From assembly GCA_026400835.1 (NCBI GenBank), contig JAPLOA010000084.1, positions 124,001-188,000 on the forward strand: a DNA stretch of 64,000 bases, given 5' to 3'. The position numbers were made by a program, and so were the translations under genes. Shown here piece after piece: positions 4,667-13,947 of the stretch. Within the stretch, counting starts at the first letter, position 1. Each line of letters begins with the position of its first letter. The stretch comes from Planctomycetales bacterium (lineage in GTDB: Bacteria > Planctomycetota > Planctomycetia > Planctomycetales > Planctomycetaceae). The notes under the pieces are model-generated. The model saw nothing but the letters and a program-made list of their open reading frames with translations, was not told the origin of the DNA and did no database searches.

Positions 4667-6604
4667 ATGAACCCCAAGCAGGATCCCTGTCAGCTCGAAC
4701 GCTTGCGATGCACGATTTTTGCAAACTCCAAAGAAGCTGCGCGCAAGGTCGCGACGGAGATCGCTTCTCTGATTCGAATTCGTAAGGCGGAAGGCAAGAA
4801 CTGTGTTCTGGGTCTGGCCACGGGCTCAACGCCGACCGGTATTTACGCCGAACTGGTCCGCATGCATCGCGAAGAGGGACTTTCCTTCTCCAACGTGATC
4901 TCGTTCAACCTTGACGAATATTATCCGATGCAACCAGAGGACGTGCAGAGTTACGTCCGTTTCATGCGTGAGCATCTTTTCAACCACATCGACATCAAGC
5001 CGGAGAACGCCAACGTTCCTGATGGAACCTGGCCTGCCGAAAAAGTGGCCGACTACTGCCGCGACTATGAAGCTCGTATTACGGCCGCCGGTGGCATCGA
5101 TATCCAGATTCTGGGGATCGGGCGAACGGGCCATATTGGTTTTAATGAGCCGGGTTCAGACCAGACAACTCGGACCCGTATGATTACGCTGGACACGGTC
5201 ACTCGCATTGATGCGGCCAGTGATTTCTTCGGCACAGAAAACGTTCCTCGCCGTGCAATCACGATGGGCGTGGGAACGATTCTGGAAGCTCGCAAGGTCT
5301 TCATCCTTGCGTTTGGCGAAAACAAATCGGGGATCGTGGCGAAGACTGTCGAAGGCGAAATGACGCCCTCGATTCCTGCGACTTATCTCCAGCGACATCC
5401 GAACGTCGAGATGCTGCTTGATCAGGCTGCCACCGCTGGCCTGACTCGCATGCGACTTCCGTGGCTGGTCGGTAACGTGAAGTGGGACGACGCGATCATC
5501 CGCCGCGCCGTGATCTGGCTGTCGGAAAAGATGAACAAAGCCATCCTGAAGCTGACCGATTCCGACTACAACGAAGAAGGTCTTCAGGACCTTTTGGCCG
5601 AGTATGGATCAGCCTACGAAATCAACCTGAATGTGTTCCGACATCTGCAGAGCACGATTGTCGGCTGGCCTGCGGGTAAGCCGGCTCATGCCAAGCGTCC
5701 TGGCGACCGACCCCAGCCGTTCGATCACATTTTCCCCAAGCGAGTTCTGTGCTTTTCACCGCATCCTGATGACGATGTCATTTCGATGGGTGGCACGTTG
5801 ATCCGACTTGCCGATCAGGAGCATGAAGTTCATGTCGCCTATCAGACATCCGGCAACATTGCGGTGTTCGATGACGATACGCTGCGATTCACAGAGTTTG
5901 TGTCTGATTATTGTGCTGCGTTTGGCCTGATGTCAGATCGGCTTACGTCTCTGGAAGAACACGTCGAAGAGTTCCTCAAGCACAAACAGCCAGGGCAGGT
6001 CGACAGCAAAGAGATCCAGCAGATCAAGGGCCTGATTCGTCAGGGGGAAGCTCGAGCCGGAGCACGATGCTGCGGCATCCCGAATGAACGACTGCACTTC
6101 CTGAATATGCCGTTTTATGAAACGGGTGGAGTGAAAAAGAAGCCGATCGGGCCAGATGACATCAACATCATCACGGAGCTCTTGAGAAAACTTAAGCCCC
6201 ACCAGATTTATGCAGCCGGCGACCTGACCGATCCTCACGGCACACACCGAGTTTGCCTGAAGGCCATCTTCCATGCCTGTGACGTTTGCCGTCATGATGA
6301 GTGGTTTAAAGAGTGCGAAGTCTGGCTGTATCGCGGTGCATGGCAGGAGTGGCCGGTCCATCAGGTTGAGATGGCGGTGCCGCTGAGTCCTCAGGAAGTG
6401 AAGCAAAAGCGTAACGCGATCTTCAAGCATGAATCACAGAAGGACCGTGCTCTGTTTCCAGGAGCTGATATGCGAGAATTCTGGCAGCGAGCAGAAGCTC
6501 GCAACGCAGACACCGCTCGTCGCTACGACAAGCTGGGTTTGGCTGAGTACGAAGCGATCGAAGGCTTCGTGAAGTGGGACGGCACCTGGGGCCTGAACGA
6601 CTAA
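4667..6604 (+). CDS. nagB: NagB-like sugar isomerase/deaminase fused to PIG-L (LmbE) deacetylase
   Basis: The 645-residue protein has two enzyme domains. Residues about 15-265 match glucosamine-6-phosphate deaminase/isomerase, with LGLATGSTPTGIYAELVRMH, FNLDEYYPM and GIGRTGHIGFNEPGS. Residues about 355-610 match the PIG-L/LmbE zinc deacetylase family, with FSPHPDDDVISMGGTL and a later DPHGTHRVC. The fusion is known from Bacteroidetes and planctomycetes, where it is annotated glucosamine-6-phosphate deaminase-like. In E. coli NagB the sequence is GxGxDGHIAFNEP with catalytic Asp141; here Thr occupies the Asp position while His and Glu are kept. The likely substrate is an amino-sugar phosphate, so the fusion may couple deacetylation and deamination (inference). 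A strong terminator follows directly. Confidence 0.92.
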   Translation: MNPKQDPCQLERLRCTIFANSKEAARKVATEIASLIRIRKAEGKNCVLGLATGSTPTGIYAELVRMHREEGLSFSNVISFNLDEYYPMQPEDVQSYVRFMREHLFNHIDIKPENANVPDGTWPAEKVADYCRDYEARITAAGGIDIQILGIGRTGHIGFNEPGSDQTTRTRMITLDTVTRIDAASDFFGTENVPRRAITMGVGTILEARKVFILAFGENKSGIVAKTVEGEMTPSIPATYLQRHPNVEMLLDQAATAGLTRMRLPWLVGNVKWDDAIIRRAVIWLSEKMNKAILKLTDSDYNEEGLQDLLAEYGSAYEINLNVFRHLQSTIVGWPAGKPAHAKRPGDRPQPFDHIFPKRVLCFSPHPDDDVISMGGTLIRLADQEHEVHVAYQTSGNIAVFDDDTLRFTEFVSDYCAAFGLMSDRLTSLEEHVEEFLKHKQPGQVDSKEIQQIKGLIRQGEARAGARCCGIPNERLHFLNMPFYETGGVKKKPIGPDDINIITELLRKLKPHQIYAAGDLTDPHGTHRVCLKAIFHACDVCRHDEWFKECEVWLYRGAWQEWPVHQVEMAVPLSPQEVKQKRNAIFKHESQKDRALFPGADMREFWQRAEARNADTARRYDKLGLAEYEAIEGFVKWDGTWGLND

Positions 6605-6783: not shown

Positions 6784-7686
6784 ATGACCCCAGAGGAACT
6801 CAAAGAGCACGTCCGCCAAATCACCGTCTGGAAGCGAGGCGAGCAGCGAGCACCGCACAAGCCTCTGTTGCTCCTGTATGCACTTGGTCGATGTCTCAAT
6901 GACCACGAGCGATTACTGCCATATTCCGAGGTAGATCGCGAGCTGAGTCCCTTGCTGATGGAGTATGGCCCCGAGCGAAAATCCTGTCACACAGAGTATC
7001 CGTTTCAGCGGCTCACCAACGACGGAATCTGGGAGCTTCAAAACGCTGATCGACTGCAACAGCGAGCCAGCAATTCGGACATGAAGAAATCCGAACTCCT
7101 CAAACACAACGTCGCAGGCGGATTCACACCGGAGGTTTTTGAGACTCTGCGTTCTCATCCGGCCTTGGTCTCGGAGCTGGCCCTTGAGATTCTGAACCTG
7201 CACTTTCCGCAGACGTTCTATGCGGATCTGCTCGATGCTGTCGGACTGGAGATTCAATTCGAGCAAACACTTCGCCGCCGTCGCGATCCGGCGTTTAGAG
7301 AACGTGTGCTCATGGCTTATCAGTATCGCTGTGCGGTCTGTGGCTACGATCTTCGACTGGGGTCAGTTCAGGTAGCCCTCGAAGCCGCTCACATCAAATG
7401 GCATCAGGCCGGCGGCCCGGATCTGGAAACCAACGGCCTCGCCCTCTGCAGCATGCACCACAAACTCTTCGACCGCGGTGCGTTTACCCTGACTGACGAA
7501 CTGCACCTCTGCGTCTCGCAAAAAGCCAACGGCTCCACCGGCCTCAGCGAATGGCTAACCTCCTTCCACGGTCTGCCACTGAAGGCTCCGCAGTCTAGTG
7601 AATACATGCCGCTGAACGAACATCTCGAGTGGCATCGGAAAGAAGTTTTCCACGGGCCGGGGAGGTCGTCTTCCCGCGTTGTCTGA
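6784..7686 (+). CDS. Phosphorothioate-DNA-binding HNH endonuclease (ScoMcrA-like), copy 1
   Basis: The 300-residue protein has an N-terminal sulfur-binding-domain signature (RAPHKPLLLLYAL near residue 23, then YPFQRLTNDGIWEL) and a C-terminal HNH nuclease. The HNH part shows CAVCGYDLR, AAHIKWHQAGGPD and GLALCSMHHKLFDRGAF, with zinc-binding Cys pairs and the catalytic His. Members of this family act as Type IV-like restriction enzymes that recognise phosphorothioate-modified DNA (family knowledge from ScoMcrA and relatives). The length fits the short SBD-HNH form. It starts the plus-strand defence-like cluster and is a divergent paralogue of the gene at 9715. No dndABCDE modification genes are nearby except the DndD remnant at 11212. 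Confidence 0.85.
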   Translation: MTPEELKEHVRQITVWKRGEQRAPHKPLLLLYALGRCLNDHERLLPYSEVDRELSPLLMEYGPERKSCHTEYPFQRLTNDGIWELQNADRLQQRASNSDMKKSELLKHNVAGGFTPEVFETLRSHPALVSELALEILNLHFPQTFYADLLDAVGLEIQFEQTLRRRRDPAFRERVLMAYQYRCAVCGYDLRLGSVQVALEAAHIKWHQAGGPDLETNGLALCSMHHKLFDRGAFTLTDELHLCVSQKANGSTGLSEWLTSFHGLPLKAPQSSEYMPLNEHLEWHRKEVFHGPGRSSSRVV

Positions 7687-7845
7687 AGTGGAGAAGGGGC
7701 TGGATTGGCCAGTACATGCCGTAATGCTCCACTGTCGCGCGCTTTCTTCTGTGTTTGTTTACTCACAGCAAGATTTCGCGAATGATTACAAATTCTTAGA
7801 CAGACAGAACACTCAGTGGGCCATCTTCAGACGCAGGCACACAAA

Positions 7846-8622
7846 ATGGAACACAAGAACCTTATTGGTATGCTCGTGGGCTACTACCTGTCTCGTTTTG
7901 ATAAGGATGCCTACCGGCGATTTTCAGTAGGCTCACAGTCAGCAGTTCACAAGTACCTTGCGGACCGAATTGGTGTCAGAGTTTCTTCAGTAAAACTCTG
8001 GCGCGATGAATTCGACCCGATACATGCGAACTCTCGCCAAGGTTGGCACAAACGAAAGATGGCTCCTTCGCGGCTTCGAATGGCGGCAATGTTGGCAACT
8101 GTATCTGAAGTCGGTGTTCTTAGATTGCTGGTTCATTGTATGTCGAATCCCGACACAGATGTCTTTGAGTTACTTCAGGAAATGAATGCAAGGATTGAAG
8201 AGCCTGATGAAATTGTTTCGACCCGTTCACTCACTGGGGGGCTCGAAGAGAAACATTTTATGACCTGGTTTGAGACAGGAAAGTCTTTATTCACAGCTCC
8301 ACTGGGCGATTGCCGCCTACTGCGATGTGGGTATGACTTTGAAGCCACCTATGACGACGTCCCTGCATATACTGAAGTCAAGGGCCTGAAGGATAGTCGC
8401 GGTGGAGTGCTCATGACCGACAAAAAATGGACTACTTGTAACGAGCACGGAGAACGTTACTTCCTTATCCTTATTCGGTCAGTCGAGTCAATGCGGCCGC
8501 CAACCGAGGTCTATCGAAATCCAGCGGTTACTCTCCCGACTCGACAAAATGTAGCGACCGTCATTCAAGTGTCGTGGTCGATTCCTACGTTAAATTCTTC
8601 CCTTGCTGTTTGGTCAAACTGA
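7846..8622 (+). CDS. DUF3883 (protein NO VEIN C-terminal)-domain protein
   Basis: A 258-residue protein starts at ATG 7846. The C-terminal third carries a DUF3883-like fold: CGYDFEATYDDVPAYTEVKG followed by LMTDKKWTTCNEHGERYFLI. The D...E-V-K spacing resembles the PD-(D/E)XK nuclease core, as in many restriction-associated DUF3883 proteins. The N-terminal half (LIGMLVGYYLSRFDKDAYRR, then VKLWRDEFDPIHANSRQGWH) matches my recollection of the N-terminal part of such proteins and may bind DNA. It sits between two SBD-HNH endonuclease genes, which supports a role in defence. Catalytic activity and target are not shown by the sequence. Confidence 0.7.
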   Translation: MEHKNLIGMLVGYYLSRFDKDAYRRFSVGSQSAVHKYLADRIGVRVSSVKLWRDEFDPIHANSRQGWHKRKMAPSRLRMAAMLATVSEVGVLRLLVHCMSNPDTDVFELLQEMNARIEEPDEIVSTRSLTGGLEEKHFMTWFETGKSLFTAPLGDCRLLRCGYDFEATYDDVPAYTEVKGLKDSRGGVLMTDKKWTTCNEHGERYFLILIRSVESMRPPTEVYRNPAVTLPTRQNVATVIQVSWSIPTLNSSLAVWSN

Positions 8623-8648
8623 AAAGAGCTTTCAAGGATCGCCCCTCA

Positions 8649-9638
8649 ATGGGCCAACTTGCCCGTTACCTTCAAGACCAGTTCATGGCACGAACACCGC
8701 GGGGGTGGTCGTGTGAGGTCGAGACGCGGGTTTTGGATACTCGGTTCGAGCGGTTGCTAGGGTATGCGCCGCAGGCGGATGTGTTGTTGGCGTCGAATGA
8801 CGGATTGCATCGACTGTGGATTGAGTTTGAAGTGAGTCGTGCAGATCCCGTCGCAAATCATGCGAAGTTTGCGACGGCTCATTTATTTCAGCCGCAGAGG
8901 CCCACCGACACGTTTGTTTCGATGATGAGTTCTCACGTGGCTCGTGGTCGTCGGAATCTGGCGGCGAATACTGTGCTGCTGATGCGGCGGATCGGGATGA
9001 AAGCTTTTCAGACGGTGCTGCTTCCGTCGGTCGCTCCAGACGAGATCAAGCGGCTCAACAGTGGTGATGATCAATCAGCGTCACTTCGATCGCTCGACGT
9101 GGATGCGGAGATTGATCGAGCATTGTCCATTGCTCGGCCGTGCTTTGATTCGCCTCAAAATCAGATTCACTTTGTCGGCGAGCCTCTGGATGTGGCCTGC
9201 AACATCGCTACATGGAATCGCGAGATGGAGACGGAGGACGGCCGCAGTCTCTGGGGACGTCGACGAGTTCGTTATTTTGCTTTTGACCCCTCCAGCGGCG
9301 AATTTGGGCCTTCGAAGTTTTGTGCCTTCCTGAACGCCCGGCATGGAACCATTTTGGATGCCGAGAAACTCGCCTTACCAATGACGATGGAGCTATATGT
9401 TTCGCTGGATGAGTCCGAACCGCGATTCGACGGCAATCGAGCGCAGCGGCATCTGACAAGAAAGCTCGGCATGGTCGCCGTGAATCTTGATGAGACGTCG
9501 GCCGACGAATCGCTCATGGTTGCCGAAGAAAGACGCTTGTCTGTCTTGTTTAATTACTGGCTCGCGAGGCATAAAGATGCGATCCAGGTTGATTCCAAAG
9601 GACCTGTCATCCTCCGGCCTCCGGTGTGGTATCAGTAG
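8649..9638 (+). CDS. Unknown protein of the defence island, possible nuclease
   Basis: The 329-residue protein starts at ATG 8649, with AAGGA about 11 nt upstream and 26 bp after the DUF3883 gene. I do not recognise the family with confidence. The N-terminal region has ADVLLASNDG...LWIEFEVSRADP, an acidic residue on one strand and E-x-E on the next. That layout recalls a restriction-endonuclease-like core, but without the usual E-x-K. The middle is Arg-rich and the C terminus is LRPPVWYQ. No membrane segments are visible. A longer start at 8574 would overlap the upstream gene. Close packing with the neighbours suggests co-transcription with them. Confidence 0.65.
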   Translation: MGQLARYLQDQFMARTPRGWSCEVETRVLDTRFERLLGYAPQADVLLASNDGLHRLWIEFEVSRADPVANHAKFATAHLFQPQRPTDTFVSMMSSHVARGRRNLAANTVLLMRRIGMKAFQTVLLPSVAPDEIKRLNSGDDQSASLRSLDVDAEIDRALSIARPCFDSPQNQIHFVGEPLDVACNIATWNREMETEDGRSLWGRRRVRYFAFDPSSGEFGPSKFCAFLNARHGTILDAEKLALPMTMELYVSLDESEPRFDGNRAQRHLTRKLGMVAVNLDETSADESLMVAEERRLSVLFNYWLARHKDAIQVDSKGPVILRPPVWYQ

Positions 9639-9714
9639 CTGATTGAGCAGTTGCCCGTCTCCAGCGTCGATGGAGTTCGAAGTCATTTCACCCGTGATCG
9701 GAGGCTCCAGCCTT

Positions 9715-10593
9715 ATGGCATTCGAACGATGGTTGTCAGAACTGCGTGATGTGAATCCGAGCGGTGAGGCGCCGCATAAGCCGTTGTTACTGCTGACGGT
9801 GCTAAAGGCTGCCGAACGGGATGGGGAATTGCCGGAGGTCGTGTTGCTGTCGCCGGAACTGGTTTATCAGTTCAAATTGTTTGAACATATCGTGGCTCAT
9901 CGGCGAAAGCAGAAGCTCGATATTCGTATGCCGTTCCATCATCTGAAATCATCCGGTGTTTGGATGCCGCTCGATAAACATGGCGAGCCGTCGACTCATC
10001 GGTCCGTGACAACGTGCGTGCGACTCGATCCGGAATTTCGAGCTGCGTGTCTGGATGCCGAGTTTCGCCAACGGGCCGCAACGATTCTTATTGAGACGTA
10101 CTTTCGACCCGAGGAAAAGATTGCTCTGCGTGAAATGCTGGGGCTGCCCGCTGACGTTGTTATTCCCGAATCGGAGTCCGATGAAACACCGGAACAGGAA
10201 GCTCGTTCCGAAGGCCGCAGCGCGAGGTTTCGCCTGGATGTGGTTCCCGCCTACAACTACACCTGCGCGTTGACTGGTTATCGCATCATCACCGTCGATC
10301 GAGGCACCATCGTTGATGCGGCGCATATTGCTCCGTTTCGCAGTTCGAAGAACAATGATGTGCGAAATGGCTTGTCGCTCTGCAAGAACGCCCACTGGTT
10401 GTTCGATGTTGGCCTGTGGTCACTGGACGACGATTATCGCGTGATCGTGGCAGAGTCGGCGTTCGATGAAGATTCTCCCGATCAGACTCCGCTGAAGCAG
10501 ATGGTTGGCCGGCGTATTCGACTTCCCCGCGAGGAACGGCATTGGCCGTTGACGGGGAATCTGGCGGCGCATCGAAGGTTACATGGGTTTTGA
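9715..10593 (+). CDS. Phosphorothioate-DNA-binding HNH endonuclease (ScoMcrA-like), copy 2
   Basis: The 292-residue protein has the same architecture as the gene at 6784: sulfur-binding-domain motif EAPHKPLLLLTVL, then MPFHHLKSSGVWMPL, and a C-terminal HNH domain with CALTGYRI, VDAAHIAPF and GLSLCKNAHWLFDVGLWSL. The second Cys of the first zinc pair is replaced (CALTGY in place of CxxC), so zinc binding may differ from copy 1. The ATG at 9715 has a GGAGG about 9 nt upstream and was preferred over the ATG at 9643. The predicted role is cleavage of phosphorothioate-marked or otherwise modified DNA. Two divergent copies in one island suggest different sequence-context specificity (inference). 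Confidence 0.83.
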   Translation: MAFERWLSELRDVNPSGEAPHKPLLLLTVLKAAERDGELPEVVLLSPELVYQFKLFEHIVAHRRKQKLDIRMPFHHLKSSGVWMPLDKHGEPSTHRSVTTCVRLDPEFRAACLDAEFRQRAATILIETYFRPEEKIALREMLGLPADVVIPESESDETPEQEARSEGRSARFRLDVVPAYNYTCALTGYRIITVDRGTIVDAAHIAPFRSSKNNDVRNGLSLCKNAHWLFDVGLWSLDDDYRVIVAESAFDEDSPDQTPLKQMVGRRIRLPREERHWPLTGNLAAHRRLHGF

Positions 10594-10635
10594 AGAGAGT
10601 TTTCAGTGTTCAGGGAATCGCAGAACGCAAAGTCC

Positions 10636-10710
10636 TGTAGGTTGGACATTCTTGTCCGACTTACAATTGAAGGAGAACACGACGGGCAGGAATGCCCATC
10701 CTGCTTTTTT
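10636..10710. repeat. Dispersed hairpin repeat (TGTAGGTTGGACATT family), copy 1
   Basis: TGTAGGTTGGACA...TGTCCGACTTACA at 10636-10665 forms a near-perfect hairpin. It is followed by GACGGGCAGGAATGCCCATC at 10681-10700. Both parts recur together, inverted, at about 23013-23090. Confidence 0.7.
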
Positions 10711-10877
10711 AGGTCTGAAACCTTACGTCCGGTGAGTGATTGAGGCTGCTTCGACTTGGTTCTTGGTGCTTGGTTGGGAATCGCAAGGCGAGCGGTTGGG
10801 CGTGAGCCCTCCGAGTGCGATTTCGGCGGTGTCGTTCAACCGCAAACCCTCGCAAAGTCATCTGGCCATTTCTACCG

Positions 10878-11011
10878 CCCTTCTCCCCCTCGAGGGAGAA
10901 GGTGGCCGGAGGCCGGTTGAGGGGGCATTACAGGGCAGATAACGAATGAAAACAGAATCGCAAAAGCACAACCCCCTCACCCTGGCCCTCTCCTCCAGGC
11001 GGGCGAGGGGA
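10878..11011. repeat. Two copies of a CCCCCTC/GAGGGGG-type repeat
   Basis: The first copy at 10878-10926 reads CCTTCTCCCCCTCGAGGGAG then AAGGTGGCCGGAGGCCGG and GAGGGGG. A second, inverted and diverged copy is at about 10971-11011. A third copy lies at 43477-43523. This is a common dispersed intergenic repeat with internal hairpins. Confidence 0.6.
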
Positions 11012-11211
11012 CAGTCGCAGGCACAGTTGCAAAACGCAGAATCCTGTCAGCTGAGCGACAGGTCTATGGTAAACACGTCGCTCCGCCGACGGGAATTGCT
11101 TCCGCGATACCCTGAACGCTGAACCCTGAACGCTGAACGCTGAAAACCGAAAACCCAAAAGAATCGTACTCGGAGGGCTTACGCCACTCCGCTCGCCGGA
11201 AAGAACAACTC

Positions 11212-12234
11212 GTGATCATTAACGAACTCAAACTGACAAACTTCTGCATCTACCGGGGCGAGCATGAGTTCAATCTGGCTCCGACCGTTGTGCGAGGAAA
11301 GTCGAAGCCCGTCGTTCTCTTCGGAGGCATGAACGGTGGCGGCAAGACGACCATTCTCGATTCCGTGCAGTTGGTGCTCTATGGCAAACGAGCGAAGTGC
11401 TCGAAACGAGGTGAAAAATCTTACGAGGATTTCCTGCGAAGCTGCATTAATCACCAAGTTGATCCGCAAATGGGGGCCTCAATCGGACTGACGTTTAAGT
11501 ACGCATCCGAAGGCACGGAGAACATCTACGAAGTGCAACGGATGTGGGCGGCGGGATCCGGCGGTGCCATTCACGAACGTGTGCTGATCCTGAAAGATGG
11601 CAATCCGGATCACTGGATGGCGGAAAACTGGAATCAACTGGTTGATGATCTGATTCCGTTCGGAGTCGCTCAGTTATGTTTCTTCGACGCGGAGAAAATT
11701 CGATTCCTCGCCGAGGACGAAACCAGCAACGTGGCGCTTGGTGATGCCATCAAGGCTCTATTGGGACTCAATCTGGCAGAGCGGCTGGTGGCCGATTCGA
11801 CCGTACTGGAAGGGCGACTGGCGAAGATGTCTCACGACCAGAATGCCCGCGTCGGTGCTTTGGTGCGGAGGACTCATGACGCCATGCGAGAATTCCTGCG
11901 TCGTGCGACCGAACGGAAGATAGCTCGTTTGTCTGATCTGGTCACGACGTCGTTTCGGTATCTCCTGCGAAAACAGAAGCTGGTTGAGCGAGTGGTGATC
12001 GATCCAACGGACTTCTCAATCACGCTTGTCGATCAGTCTGGCGCTGTGTTGCCCATTGAACGGCTCAGTGAGGGCGAAAAGCAGATCTTTACAATCAGCG
12101 TGTTGTGGGGATTGTCTCACGCCACAGCGTCGAGAATCAGCATTCCTGTGCTTCAAAGAGCAAGCACTTTAGCCAACTACCAGACGGCAAGTATCGCCCG
12201 ATCAAGTAATTGGCGTTGCTGCGATTCGATTTAA
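11212..12234 (+). pseudogene. dndD: Shortened dndD-like SMC-type ATPase gene (likely decayed)
   Basis: The 340-residue product begins like DndD, the ATPase of phosphorothioate DNA modification: IINELKLTNFCIYRGEHEF, Walker A GGMNGGGKTT near residue 40, and LCFFDAEKIRFLAED near residue 160. It then jumps at about residues 205-215 to the C-terminal part RLSEGEKQIFTISVLWGLSH (ABC signature). Full DndD is about 650-700 residues; here most of the central coiled coil is missing. The end also lacks the expected Walker B/D-loop segment (IIDTPxxRLD-like) and is replaced by unrelated sequence from about 12150. Without Walker B it should not hydrolyse ATP. The reading frame is still open, so a short product could be made. 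It is the only modification-type dnd gene visible beside the two sulfur-binding endonucleases. Confidence 0.75.
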
Positions 12235-12307: not shown

Positions 12308-13468
12308 CTAACCCAGCGCCTGTTTCAGGTCGGCGATCAGGTCTTCGGAGTGCTCCAGACCCACGGATACGCGAACGGTCTTTTCTGAGATGCCGGCGGC
12401 GGCTCGGGCTTCGGGAGTCATCGACGCATGGCTCATTGTGACCGGGAATGAGATCAGCGATTCAATTCCGCCCAATGATTCGGCCACATCAAACAGTCGA
12501 GTCTTCATACAGACTCGTTCCGCGACGCTGCGGCCATCTTTCGTATCGAATGACAGCATGGCTCCAAAGCCACGTTGCTGAGTTTTCGCCAGTTCGTGCT
12601 GCGGATGTGTCTCAAGTCCCGGATAGTAAACTCGTTCGATCAGCGGATGAGCATCCAGGAATCGAGCAATCTTCATGGCGTTGCTTTGTTGAGCATCCAT
12701 GCGGCAGCCCAGGGTCTTGATGCCTCGCAGTACGAGCCACGCATCAAATGGTGAGCAGGCCAGACCCAGAGCATTGCAGATCCACGCAATCTTCTTCGCG
12801 TGCTCCGGTGACTTTGAAACAACGCATCCACCAACGACATCAGAATGCCCGTTGATGTATTTAGTCGTGGAGTGCATCACGATGTCGACGCCGAAATCCA
12901 GCGGTCGCTGGAGATAAGGAGACAGAAACGTGTTGTCACAAATTGTGATCGCGTTGTGTTTGCGAGCCAACTGCACGACGCCAGCCAGATCGATGACTTT
13001 CAACAGAGGGTTGCTTGGTGTCTCAATCCAGACTCCGCGAGTGGCTGGAGTAAACGCGGCCGCCACCTTTCCCAAATCTGTCATGTCGACAAACGTCAAC
13101 GAGATTCCTTTTTCCTTCAGAAACTTGTCGAACAGACGAAAGGTACCACCATACAAGTCGGCCGGGGCAACAATGTGATCACCGGGGGAAAACAAAGCCA
13201 TCGCACAATGCACGGCTGACATGCCAGTTGATGTCGCAACGCAGCCAACGCCGCCTTCAAGGGCTGTGATGTTTTCTTCCAGGGCCTTGCGAGTCGGATT
13301 GCCGGAACGCGTGTAATCGTAGCCCGAATTGCTCTCGAGGCTGTTCCAGTAGAACGTGGATGTTGGATAAATCGGAGTCGTCACGCTGTTGTATTGCTGG
13401 TCTTTGTGAACTCCGCCATGAATGCATAGGGTTTCGAAATGCAGAGGCGATTCTTCCGGTGTCGACAT
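12308..13468 (-). CDS. metB: Trans-sulfuration PLP enzyme (cystathionine gamma-synthase/lyase family)
   Basis: The 386-residue enzyme belongs to the Cys/Met metabolism PLP family. It shows FETLCIHGGVHKDQQYNSV at the N terminus, YDYTRSGNPTRKALE, and the PLP-lysine region IVMHSTTKYINGHSDVVGG; SFDTKDGRSVAE and LISFPVTMSHASM lie towards the C terminus. Members make cystathionine from activated homoserine and cysteine, or cleave it. The sequence alone does not settle synthase versus lyase. An upstream in-frame start at 13573 would add 35 Cys/Asn-rich residues without family similarity, so ATG 13468 is preferred. It is convergent with the DndD remnant and divergent from the kinase gene. Confidence 0.9.
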   Translation of the reverse strand: MSTPEESPLHFETLCIHGGVHKDQQYNSVTTPIYPTSTFYWNSLESNSGYDYTRSGNPTRKALEENITALEGGVGCVATSTGMSAVHCAMALFSPGDHIVAPADLYGGTFRLFDKFLKEKGISLTFVDMTDLGKVAAAFTPATRGVWIETPSNPLLKVIDLAGVVQLARKHNAITICDNTFLSPYLQRPLDFGVDIVMHSTTKYINGHSDVVGGCVVSKSPEHAKKIAWICNALGLACSPFDAWLVLRGIKTLGCRMDAQQSNAMKIARFLDAHPLIERVYYPGLETHPQHELAKTQQRGFGAMLSFDTKDGRSVAERVCMKTRLFDVAESLGGIESLISFPVTMSHASMTPEARAAAGISEKTVRVSVGLEHSEDLIADLKQALG

Positions 13469-13947
13469 GAGTGATCCGTCAGGTAGAAAACAGACTGGGA
13501 TTGAGTTGCGATCCAGATCGATCGCATTTGATTTGTTGCAATGACACGGTTTCTTCGTGTCTGTTGCGGGCATTCTGCGAGAACTCCGGAAGATTGCAAA
13601 CCTGCCGCGTCAGAGAACGAAACCGAAGAACGCCGCGTGAGGCATCCTGCTCATAAGTACCTCCCGGTCACGAAATGCCCCGTTGTTTCTGCTCATTGCC
13701 AGAATTGATCCGTTGGTTCACAGGCCATTGTGCGAAACCTCTAATCCCCGGGAATTCGTTCATAAGTTCTTCCTTCCGGCCAAAGAACCACCCGCGGGAA
13801 CAGCTCTCAGCTCAGGTTGAAAGGAATGTCGCGGTCCGTTTGCGGCAGGCTTTGTGGTCTCGTGGCGGAAAACAGTTGTTCAGTGTCCCGAAAATCGCGA
13901 TACTGCCACGCTGCCATGTTTTTCTGCATTTTAGGTGGAAGATTCCC
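13469..13947. other. Divergent intergenic region between metB-type gene and kinase gene
   Basis: This 479-bp gap lies between two divergently transcribed genes and must hold both promoters. I see no RNA gene, riboswitch or convincing short gene. Open frames that extend the neighbours into it lack family similarity. Confidence 0.5.

What the first reader, a model, noticed from the sequence alone, without database searches (positions are those of the whole stretch)
6784..12234. Phosphorothioate-linked defence island that has lost its modification genes
Two SBD-HNH endonucleases of the ScoMcrA type, which are thought to cut phosphorothioate DNA, flank a DUF3883 protein and an unknown nuclease-like protein. 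The only modification-type dnd gene seen is a gutted dndD. A host that carries phosphorothioate marks would be attacked by these enzymes, so loss of Dnd modification may have been required for, or followed, their acquisition.
Basis: partly seen in the sequence, partly recalled or inferred. Interest (0 to 1): 0.75.

Follow-up and report, generated by a model that had tools for sequence, protein, structure and literature searches.

The report
Dnd island stripped to its nucleases
A planctomycete-like chromosome carries the ruins of a sulfur-marking DNA defence cluster in which the marking genes are gone or broken but two nucleases predicted to read sulfur marks survive; relatives keep such nucleases beside open marking genes, so the two are not simply incompatible.

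Summary
Two open SBD-HNH endonuclease genes flank a DUF3883 gene and a PD-(D/E)XK-like gene, followed by a dndD with a 278-codon in-frame internal deletion and no Walker B end. Genome searches found no DndC, DndB or SspD, and dndD pieces on two more contigs, so PT modification was very probably lost; both those contigs end inside dndD, leaving gaps.

The incompatibility argument is not supported. The second enzyme (SBD2) belongs to a clade in which 30 of 80 loci have Dnd genes within 6 kb (7 of 30 where 6 kb is held on both sides); 13 are tight, same-strand pairs with DndC. Relative G143 has open dndBCDE and both enzyme types; G075 a full cluster plus SBD2. Over 170 genomes of the order, SBD1-type enzymes and dndC co-occur slightly more than expected. 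Two near relatives have dndE, or an SBD2 relic, at this same site. Counter-cases exist: in G114, G216, L147 and G003 one partner is broken.

Best reading: a decayed Dnd island whose nuclease half outlived its modification half and now acts as orphan PT-dependent (type IV) restriction. SBD-HNH and Dnd-linked HNH nucleases are published; I did not find the DndC-paired two-domain clade in the text I saw.

The parts
6784..7686 (+). SBD1: SBD-HNH endonuclease, 300 aa, NF045808 type; APHK (23-26) and YP (72-73) pocket residues and HNH residues kept
   Evidence: dN/dS 0.061 to G117 and 0.100 to G130
7816..8622 (+). NOV_C/DUF3883 protein, 268 aa; a relative follows SBD1 in G117 (70% identity over 64 aa, cut by the contig end)
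8649..9638 (+). Protein without a family, 329 aa from the likely start at 8649; predicted PD-(D/E)XK-like, with D44 and E59-x-E61 invariant in 6 sequences; next to SBD2 also in G130 and in two Rhodopirellula records
   Evidence: dN/dS 0.060 to G130
9715..10593 (+). SBD2: divergent SBD-HNH endonuclease, 292 aa from the likely start at 9715 (ORF opens at 9643); APHK (19-22), MP (72-73) and HNH residues kept; no SRA domain in the Pfam scan
   Evidence: dN/dS 0.052 to G130
10594..11211 (.). Stretch without a listed ORF of 100 aa or more, with short pieces that recur in related genomes
11212..12122 (+). dndD remnant: N-lobe with Walker A and part of the C-lobe with the LSEGE signature; internal deletion; DTP motif (Walker B end) missing
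11825..11827 (+). In-frame deletion junction (834 nt, 278 codons, missing relative to C80), identical to the junction in the dndD copy on contig C86
12115..12234 (+). Tail sequence that follows dndE on C86 and in G131: a second deletion removed the end of dndD and all of dndE here
12308..13573 (-). Flanking gene, cystathionine gamma-synthase-type by my reading (not searched against a library), that anchors the shared site in G131 and G132

Best explanation
This is a decayed Dnd (phosphorothioation) island at a site shared by near relatives. Shown by sequence: no dndA, B, C or E gene matches in the window, dndD is gutted and loses its end, and two SBD-HNH genes, a DUF3883 gene and a PD-(D/E)XK-like gene remain open; the three that could be tested are under pairwise purifying selection. 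Shown by comparison: the SBD2 clade is a recurrent neighbour of Dnd modification genes, and dndE or an SBD2 relic sits at this very site in two near relatives. Inferred: SBD2, and less surely SBD1, belonged to the Dnd island and stayed when modification was lost, rather than arriving afterwards. Inferred: in the present PT-free host both act as orphan type IV enzymes, the SBD docking the Rp sulfur of incoming PT-DNA and the HNH domain cutting nearby. Inferred and weaker: in PT-marked relatives self-cutting is avoided because the enzyme reads other PT sequence contexts or needs a further cue, as the PT-sensing effectors SspE and DndI do.
For: No DndC in G000, no DndB (47), no SspD (70, controls ring in 7 of 14). 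dndD pieces on C72, C80 and C86, a dndE on C86. dndE at the same site in G131, SBD2 relic in G132. 30 of 80 SBD2-clade loci with Dnd genes within 6 kb; 20 of 22 linked DndC frames keep SGGKDS (37, 62). 17 of 17 aligned SBD2 proteins, 13 of them from Dnd-linked loci, keep APHK, P73 and the HNH residues. The SBD2 model matches PT-binding SBD structures. SBD2 has M where ScoMcrA has Y164, and Y164M strengthened PT binding (PMC6224610, passages). dN/dS: SBD1 0.061 and 0.100, SBD2 0.052, third protein 0.060.
Against: dN/dS is pairwise, with dS from 0.75 to 1.36, and cannot isolate the time after dnd loss; the DUF3883 gene could not be tested (63 codons, saturated). G132 keeps only an SBD2 relic, as neutral decay would give. 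Counting only loci with 6 kb held on both sides, linkage is 7 of 30 (79). By a pattern search 10 of 78 clade proteins lack PHK (62). Broken partners in G114, G216, L147 and G003 fit antagonism. Contigs C80 and C86 end inside dndD (11, 15), so an unassembled dndC is not strictly excluded. No biochemistry on these proteins.
Confidence: 0.6

Rival explanations
1. One reading: SBD-HNH enzymes kill a PT-marked cell, so loss of Dnd modification was needed for, or forced by, keeping them.
For: Published restriction of dnd+ DNA by SBD-HNH enzymes and SBD homologs (PMC7461809 passages; PMC6224610 passages). Broken partners: G114 (dndC without PP-loop), G216 (dndC cut short), L147 (DndC cut short), G003 (SBD2 pocket lost). 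The window itself.
Against: G143, G075, L100 and L114 have DndC with SGGKDS and SBD2 with pocket and HNH residues; G143 also has SBD1. Co-occurrence in the order is above expectation. dnd genes and SBD2 are old neighbours at this site.
Confidence: 0.2
2. Neutral decay: the whole island is dying and the nucleases have simply not broken yet; they do nothing in this host.
For: dndD and dndE decay here; the SBD2 relic in G132 has lost the HK motif; dndD pieces lie on three contigs of one genome.
Against: Four non-dnd genes of the island are still open over 3.8 kb while its dnd genes are broken or gone; low pairwise dN/dS, which however includes time before the loss.
Confidence: 0.25
3. The SBD domains of this pair read something other than PT, such as another phage modification.
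For: SBD2 is below the NF045808 cut-off and lacks the pocket tyrosine.
Against: APHK and the proline are invariant in the aligned sets; M at the tyrosine site strengthened PT binding in ScoMcrA; the closest solved fold is a PT-DNA complex; recurrent Dnd linkage.
Confidence: 0.1
4. The DndD without its middle part is a working small ATPase kept with DndE, not debris.
For: The same in-frame junction occurs in two copies that differ by 12% in DNA over 522 nt, with dN/dS 0.046; a dndE follows the C86 copy.
Against: The window copy lacks the DTP motif of Walker B. Trees of the two halves disagree on whether the C72 and C86 copies are sisters (support 0.16 in the one, C72 with C80 in the other), so the junction may have spread by recombination.
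Confidence: 0.1

Closest known systems
SBD-HNH type IV endonucleases (SprMcrA, EcoWI, Ksp11411I, Bsp305I)
   Same: Two-domain SBD-HNH build, pocket residues HK and YP (SBD1), HNH residues
   Different: SBD2 has MP, is below the NF045808 cut-off, and its clade is often next to dnd, whereas Lutz and others put fewer than 3.6% of predicted PT-dependent enzymes near a dnd cluster (PMC7461809, passages)
Dnd-locus wHTH(SBD)-SAD(SRA)-HNH nucleases of Rakesh, Aravind and Krishnan 2024
   Same: PT-reader HNH nuclease in Dnd modification loci, proposed there as a restriction component (PMC10853773, sections 16 and 17 read, passages of others)
   Different: No SRA domain in the Pfam scan of SBD2; in this genome the modification genes are gone
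SBD of Hga (PDB 8h0l)
   Same: Closest solved sulfur-binding domain to SBD2 by sequence and fold; LP at the pocket where SBD2 has MP
   Different: 16-20% identity in the fold match; its paper was not in the library, only PDB names were seen
DndI and SspE, PT-sensing effectors
   Same: Nucleases with a PT-sensing pocket that live with PT-marked self DNA (PMC11662687, passages; PMC9646914, start of abstract in the listing)
   Different: They have an NTPase domain; none was found in SBD2

Membership tests
PT-dependent SBD-HNH type IV endonuclease | Sulfur-binding domain with pocket H, K/R and P | tested here: met
   APHK and P in SBD1 and SBD2; SBD1 by sequence to ScoMcrA and SprMcrA; SBD2 model to 8h0l, E 2.9e-4
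PT-dependent SBD-HNH type IV endonuclease | SBD1: score over the curated NF045808 cut-off | tested here: met
   378.5 bits against 180
PT-dependent SBD-HNH type IV endonuclease | SBD2: score over the curated NF045808 cut-off | tested here: not met
   100.6 bits against 180: a divergent relative, not a member of that NCBI family
PT-dependent SBD-HNH type IV endonuclease | HNH catalytic residues | tested here: met
   AAH, NG and H..FD in both proteins and invariant in the aligned sets; catalytic roles recalled
PT-dependent SBD-HNH type IV endonuclease | Cuts PT-DNA in preference to plain DNA | not testable with these tools
   needs biochemistry
Dnd modification system | DndC with PP-loop in the genome | tested here: not met
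   0 matches at E<=0.001 in G000; gaps at contig ends remain
Dnd modification system | Intact DndD and DndE | tested here: not met
   dndD copies found are deleted or cut by contig ends; a full-length dndE frame was seen on C86 only; no genome-wide DndE search was run
Dnd modification system | DndA or a substitute cysteine desulfurase | not tested
   no match in the window; the genome was not searched
DndFGH restriction system | DndH present | tested here: inconclusive
   No match, but no control genome rang; a DndF piece on C80
Ssp modification system | SspD present | tested here: not met
   0 matches; controls ring in 7 of 14 genomes. The DUF4007 (SspB, by recall) search had no ringing control

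The most novel reading that the evidence does not exclude
A distinct clade of two-domain SBD-HNH nucleases is the restriction half of a PT-based system, often paired directly with DndC and, in L148, with a DndE-NTPase fusion and DndB but no DndD in the stretch held. In this genome that half has outlived the modification half. An enzyme tolerated both beside open PT-writing genes and in a PT-free host can be neither a simple cutter of all PT-DNA nor a simple cutter of unmarked DNA, so it should be a conditional or sequence-context-specific reader.
Probability: 0.4. Interest if true: 0.65.

Novelty: new member of a known kind. Interest (0 to 1): 0.48.

Why it matters
SBD-HNH enzymes are mostly seen as weapons against PT-marked DNA, which predicts that they avoid PT-marking hosts. 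Here one clade lives beside, and in tight pairs with, PT-writing genes, and one genome shows the state after the writer is gone. That gives direct test cases (G143- and G075-type hosts against the window's host) for how a PT reader with a nuclease domain spares its own cell.

Tried and rejected
Looked for a dnd or ssp set elsewhere in the genome: DndC, DndB (47), DndH (48), DUF4007 (49) and SspD (70) gave nothing. DndH and DUF4007 had no ringing control. DndA, DndE, DndF and DndG were not searched genome-wide, and two contigs end inside dndD.

Tested whether the shared gutted dndD junction marks one selected lineage: trees of the 5' and 3' segments conflict with weak support, so I do not claim it.

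Tested mutual exclusion across genomes. Order: 13 with SBD1 and 10 with dndC over cut-off of 170, both in 3; Fisher p 0.03 towards co-occurrence, 0.14 if G114 with its broken dndC is counted as without. G138, which has SBD1, has a DndC match below the cut-off (102 bits) that I did not count. Phylum sample: 11 and 7 of 392, both in 1, p 0.18; it overlaps the order. These are counts of species, not independent events.

The two linkage counts over the 80 loci (tblastn over the whole locus; ORF clusters within 6 kb) both give 30 but differ in one locus (L146 against L142). By tblastn 26 loci have a DndC match, one of them weak at 27%; I used the 22 of the ORF clusters. Some clustered frames are probably antisense (one each in L149 and L175); both loci are linked by other matches. 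ORF starts were taken mechanically, so overlaps in the 13 pairs are approximate.

The fold of the unnamed protein is low-confidence (mean pLDDT 50). Foldseek gave nothing under E 0.001. The second look listed many PD-(D/E)XK nucleases, Z up to 7.9, below the level that is safe on its own, mixed with unrelated folds. In the SBD2 model residues 150-224 are under pLDDT 50 save a few.

The SBDHga paper was not in the library.

The first tree script failed at the print step; the tree was redone with FastTree, with 9 of the 80 loci dropped as short or interrupted. That tree did not settle whether SBD1 is monophyletic.
Full report
What is there. The window is part of a 7.58 Mb genome in 112 contigs, 99.99% complete by the tool's estimate. 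Between a glucosamine-6-phosphate-deaminase-like gene (4667-6604) and a cystathionine gamma-synthase-type gene (12308-13573, minus strand; both names from my reading of the proteins, not from a search) lie five open frames on the plus strand. SBD1 (6784-7686) scores 378.5 bits to NF045808 with a cut-off of 180; SBD2 (9643-10593) scores 100.6, below it. Between them are a NOV_C/DUF3883 protein and a protein without a family. The last frame is DndD-like. Seventeen DndA-E type queries match nothing else in the window.

Both SBD-HNH proteins look intact. SBD1 has APHK and YP, SBD2 has APHK and MP; the HNH residues are present in both. In ScoMcrA the pocket tyrosine is not well conserved among homologs, and its change to methionine strengthened PT binding (PMC6224610, passages). 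In SprMcrA the cavity is formed by Y31, Q32, Y78, P79 and A82, and changing either tyrosine to alanine almost abolished binding (PMC7470945, passages). The SBD2 model (mean pLDDT 71, poor in residues 150-224) matches the Hga SBD-PT-DNA complex first (E 2.9e-4), then SprMcrA and ScoMcrA. Pairwise dN/dS is 0.061 and 0.100 for SBD1 (to G117 and G130), 0.052 for SBD2 and 0.060 for the unnamed protein (to G130). These values include time before dnd was lost; the DUF3883 gene was too short and saturated to test.

The dndD remnant. Relative to C80 the window copy lacks 834 nt in frame, removing DndD profile positions 207-479, which by recalled anatomy is the coiled-coil stretch. It then breaks off at 12122 into a tail which on contig C86 lies beyond dndE. 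Walker A and the LSEGE signature remain; the DTP motif of Walker B does not. C86 carries a dndD with the identical junction, a dndE and a 45-residue piece of SBD2. C80 carries a DndF piece followed by an ungutted dndD whose first 99 profile positions are missing. The copies differ by 10-15% in DNA over the compared segments. Whether the gutted form was selected cannot be told, because the trees of its halves conflict.

Is PT modification gone? DndC: no match at E<=0.001. DndB: none, controls ring in 2 of 14. SspD: none, controls ring in 7 of 14. DndH and DUF4007 searches were empty but without a ringing control. DndA, DndE, DndF and DndG were not searched genome-wide. C86 begins and C80 ends inside dndD. 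The longest exact match among the three dndD regions compared is 44 nt, so I do not know why the contigs break there, and real gaps remain.

The site. G131 and G132 share the CGS-type gene at 97-99% protein identity. Left of it G131 has dndE (98% to the C86 dndE) and the same tail, up to the contig start; G132 has a helicase-like frame (my reading) and an SBD2 relic in which HK has become QI. G131 and G132 have no DndC match and no NF045808 match. Of the 13 other same-genus genomes with this gene I fetched 11, and none has a dnd or SBD match in the stretches held. So Dnd/SBD2 genes lay at this site in this genome and in two near relatives, and the set is incomplete in all three.

Does SBD-HNH avoid dnd? 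In the order (170 genomes) SBD1-type scores over cut-off occur in 13, dndC over cut-off in 10, both in 3: G130, G114 and G143; Fisher p is 0.03 for co-occurrence. In the phylum sample (392) they occur in 11 and 7, both in 1 (G498). By neighbourhood, of the 12 SBD1-type loci of the order outside the window 2 have DndB-E matches on the fetched stretch (G114, G143). Of 6 SBD2-type loci outside the window 5 do: G075 and G003 with DndB-E, G143, G130 and G077 with DndB only, the last a 76-residue match; G004 has none. A short match in G062 was left out of this count. Stretches held ranged from 3.7 to 20 kb.

G143 is the cleanest counter-example. Contig C100 carries SBD2, SBD1, a DndB-like gene and a cysteine desulfurase-type gene; contig C69 starts with dndB, dndC, dndD, dndE, all open, DndC with its PP-loop. 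The order matches the single stretch of G075 (SBD2, DndB-like, desulfurase-type, dndB, dndC, dndD, dndE). That the two G143 contigs adjoin is an inference; its record is titled as a metagenome-assembled genome (L103).

Cases the other way. G114: dndC beside SBD1 has lost its N-terminal PP-loop. G216: a dndC cut to a 153-aa frame lies 87 bases from an SBD-HNH-like gene of 89 bits. G003: SBD2 has no APHK in any of three frames translated, near a DndC with SGGKD. L147: the DndC frame is 241 aa without the motif.

Wider survey. The SBD2 alignment found 88 relatives in species genomes, of which 80 were kept. Thirty of 80 have DndB, DndC, DndD or a DndE-NTPase gene within 6 kb; 22 have DndC; 20 of those 22 keep SGGKDS (L116 is cut by the contig start, L147 is shortened). 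In 13, L116 and L147 among them, the SBD2 frame starts between 82 bases before and 50 bases after the end of DndC on the same strand. Two such DndC proteins score 377 and 386 bits to TIGR03183, over its cut-off of 290. L148 adds a DndE-domain NTPase (Pfam E 8e-10; below the NCBIfam cut-off) and a DndB-type gene. With at least 3 kb held on both sides the share is 15 of 40, with 6 kb 7 of 30. By pattern 68 of 78 proteins have PHK; the second motif was read as LP in 28 and MP in 16. Linked loci are scattered over the SBD2 tree. Record titles include planctomycetes, verrucomicrobia and deltaproteobacteria.

How it most likely works. PT-dependent cutting by SBD-HNH enzymes is published (PMC7461809, passages). 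DndI and DndFGH are harmful in cells without PT (PMC11662687, passages). An intact SBD2 in a PT-free host therefore argues against an enzyme that cuts all unmarked DNA; its life beside DndC elsewhere argues against one that cuts all PT-DNA. Sequence context or a second cue is the simplest reconciliation; Lutz and others name inactive partners, lack of PT-dependence, or a different sequence context as possibilities for their unresolved cases. In this host both enzymes would act on incoming PT-DNA. This step is inference.

What is known. Lutz and others expected SBD-HNH genes not to co-occur with dnd clusters of the same specificity and found fewer than 3.6% that may be associated with one. Rakesh, Aravind and Krishnan report wHTH-SAD-HNH nucleases in the Dnd loci of 698 taxa and propose such enzymes as restriction parts; they also note that DndC is missing in about 30% of taxa with Dnd modification genes (PMC10853773, sections 16 and 17 read, passages of others). 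I found no statement on a two-domain, DndC-paired clade in those texts or in the listings; supplements were not open to me.

Verdict. Interest is moderate: the parts are known, but the coexistence puzzle becomes testable.

Noticed in passing
window 8649-9638; L089, L105, L107, L109, L114: A protein family without a Pfam, PADLOC or NCBIfam match in those scanned (window, L109; L114 not in PADLOC), predicted PD-(D/E)XK-like with an ExE motif, found near SBD2-type genes; in L109 the next gene is an HKD-SF2 helicase type IV-like enzyme, with a similar one in L105.
   Followed up: partly
L148:1217-6352: DndC, SBD2-HNH, a DndE domain fused to a P-loop NTPase, and a DndB-type gene in a row, with no DndD seen in the 6.9 kb held; genes like the DndE-NTPase also in L125, L142 and L175. 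Possibly an alternative PT-writing cluster.
   Followed up: partly
L213 (G137 C30): Another dndD with a different in-frame internal deletion by the HMM (profile 1-82 and 362-650 in one 420-aa frame), again followed by dndE, in a genome with only a weak DndC match.
   Followed up: no
L080 (G000 C86):2201-6347: Next to the gutted dndD-dndE pair lie a phage-type integrase and a DNA polymerase A gene on the minus strand, perhaps a mobile element.
   Followed up: no
window 10636-10700 and 10871-10926: Short sequences that recur in related genomes (G130, G118 and G117), possibly dispersed REP-like elements.
   Followed up: no
L081 (G114): dndB, dndD and dndE frames open, but dndC has lost its PP-loop N-terminus, beside an SBD1 gene with pocket and HNH residues.
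   Followed up: partly
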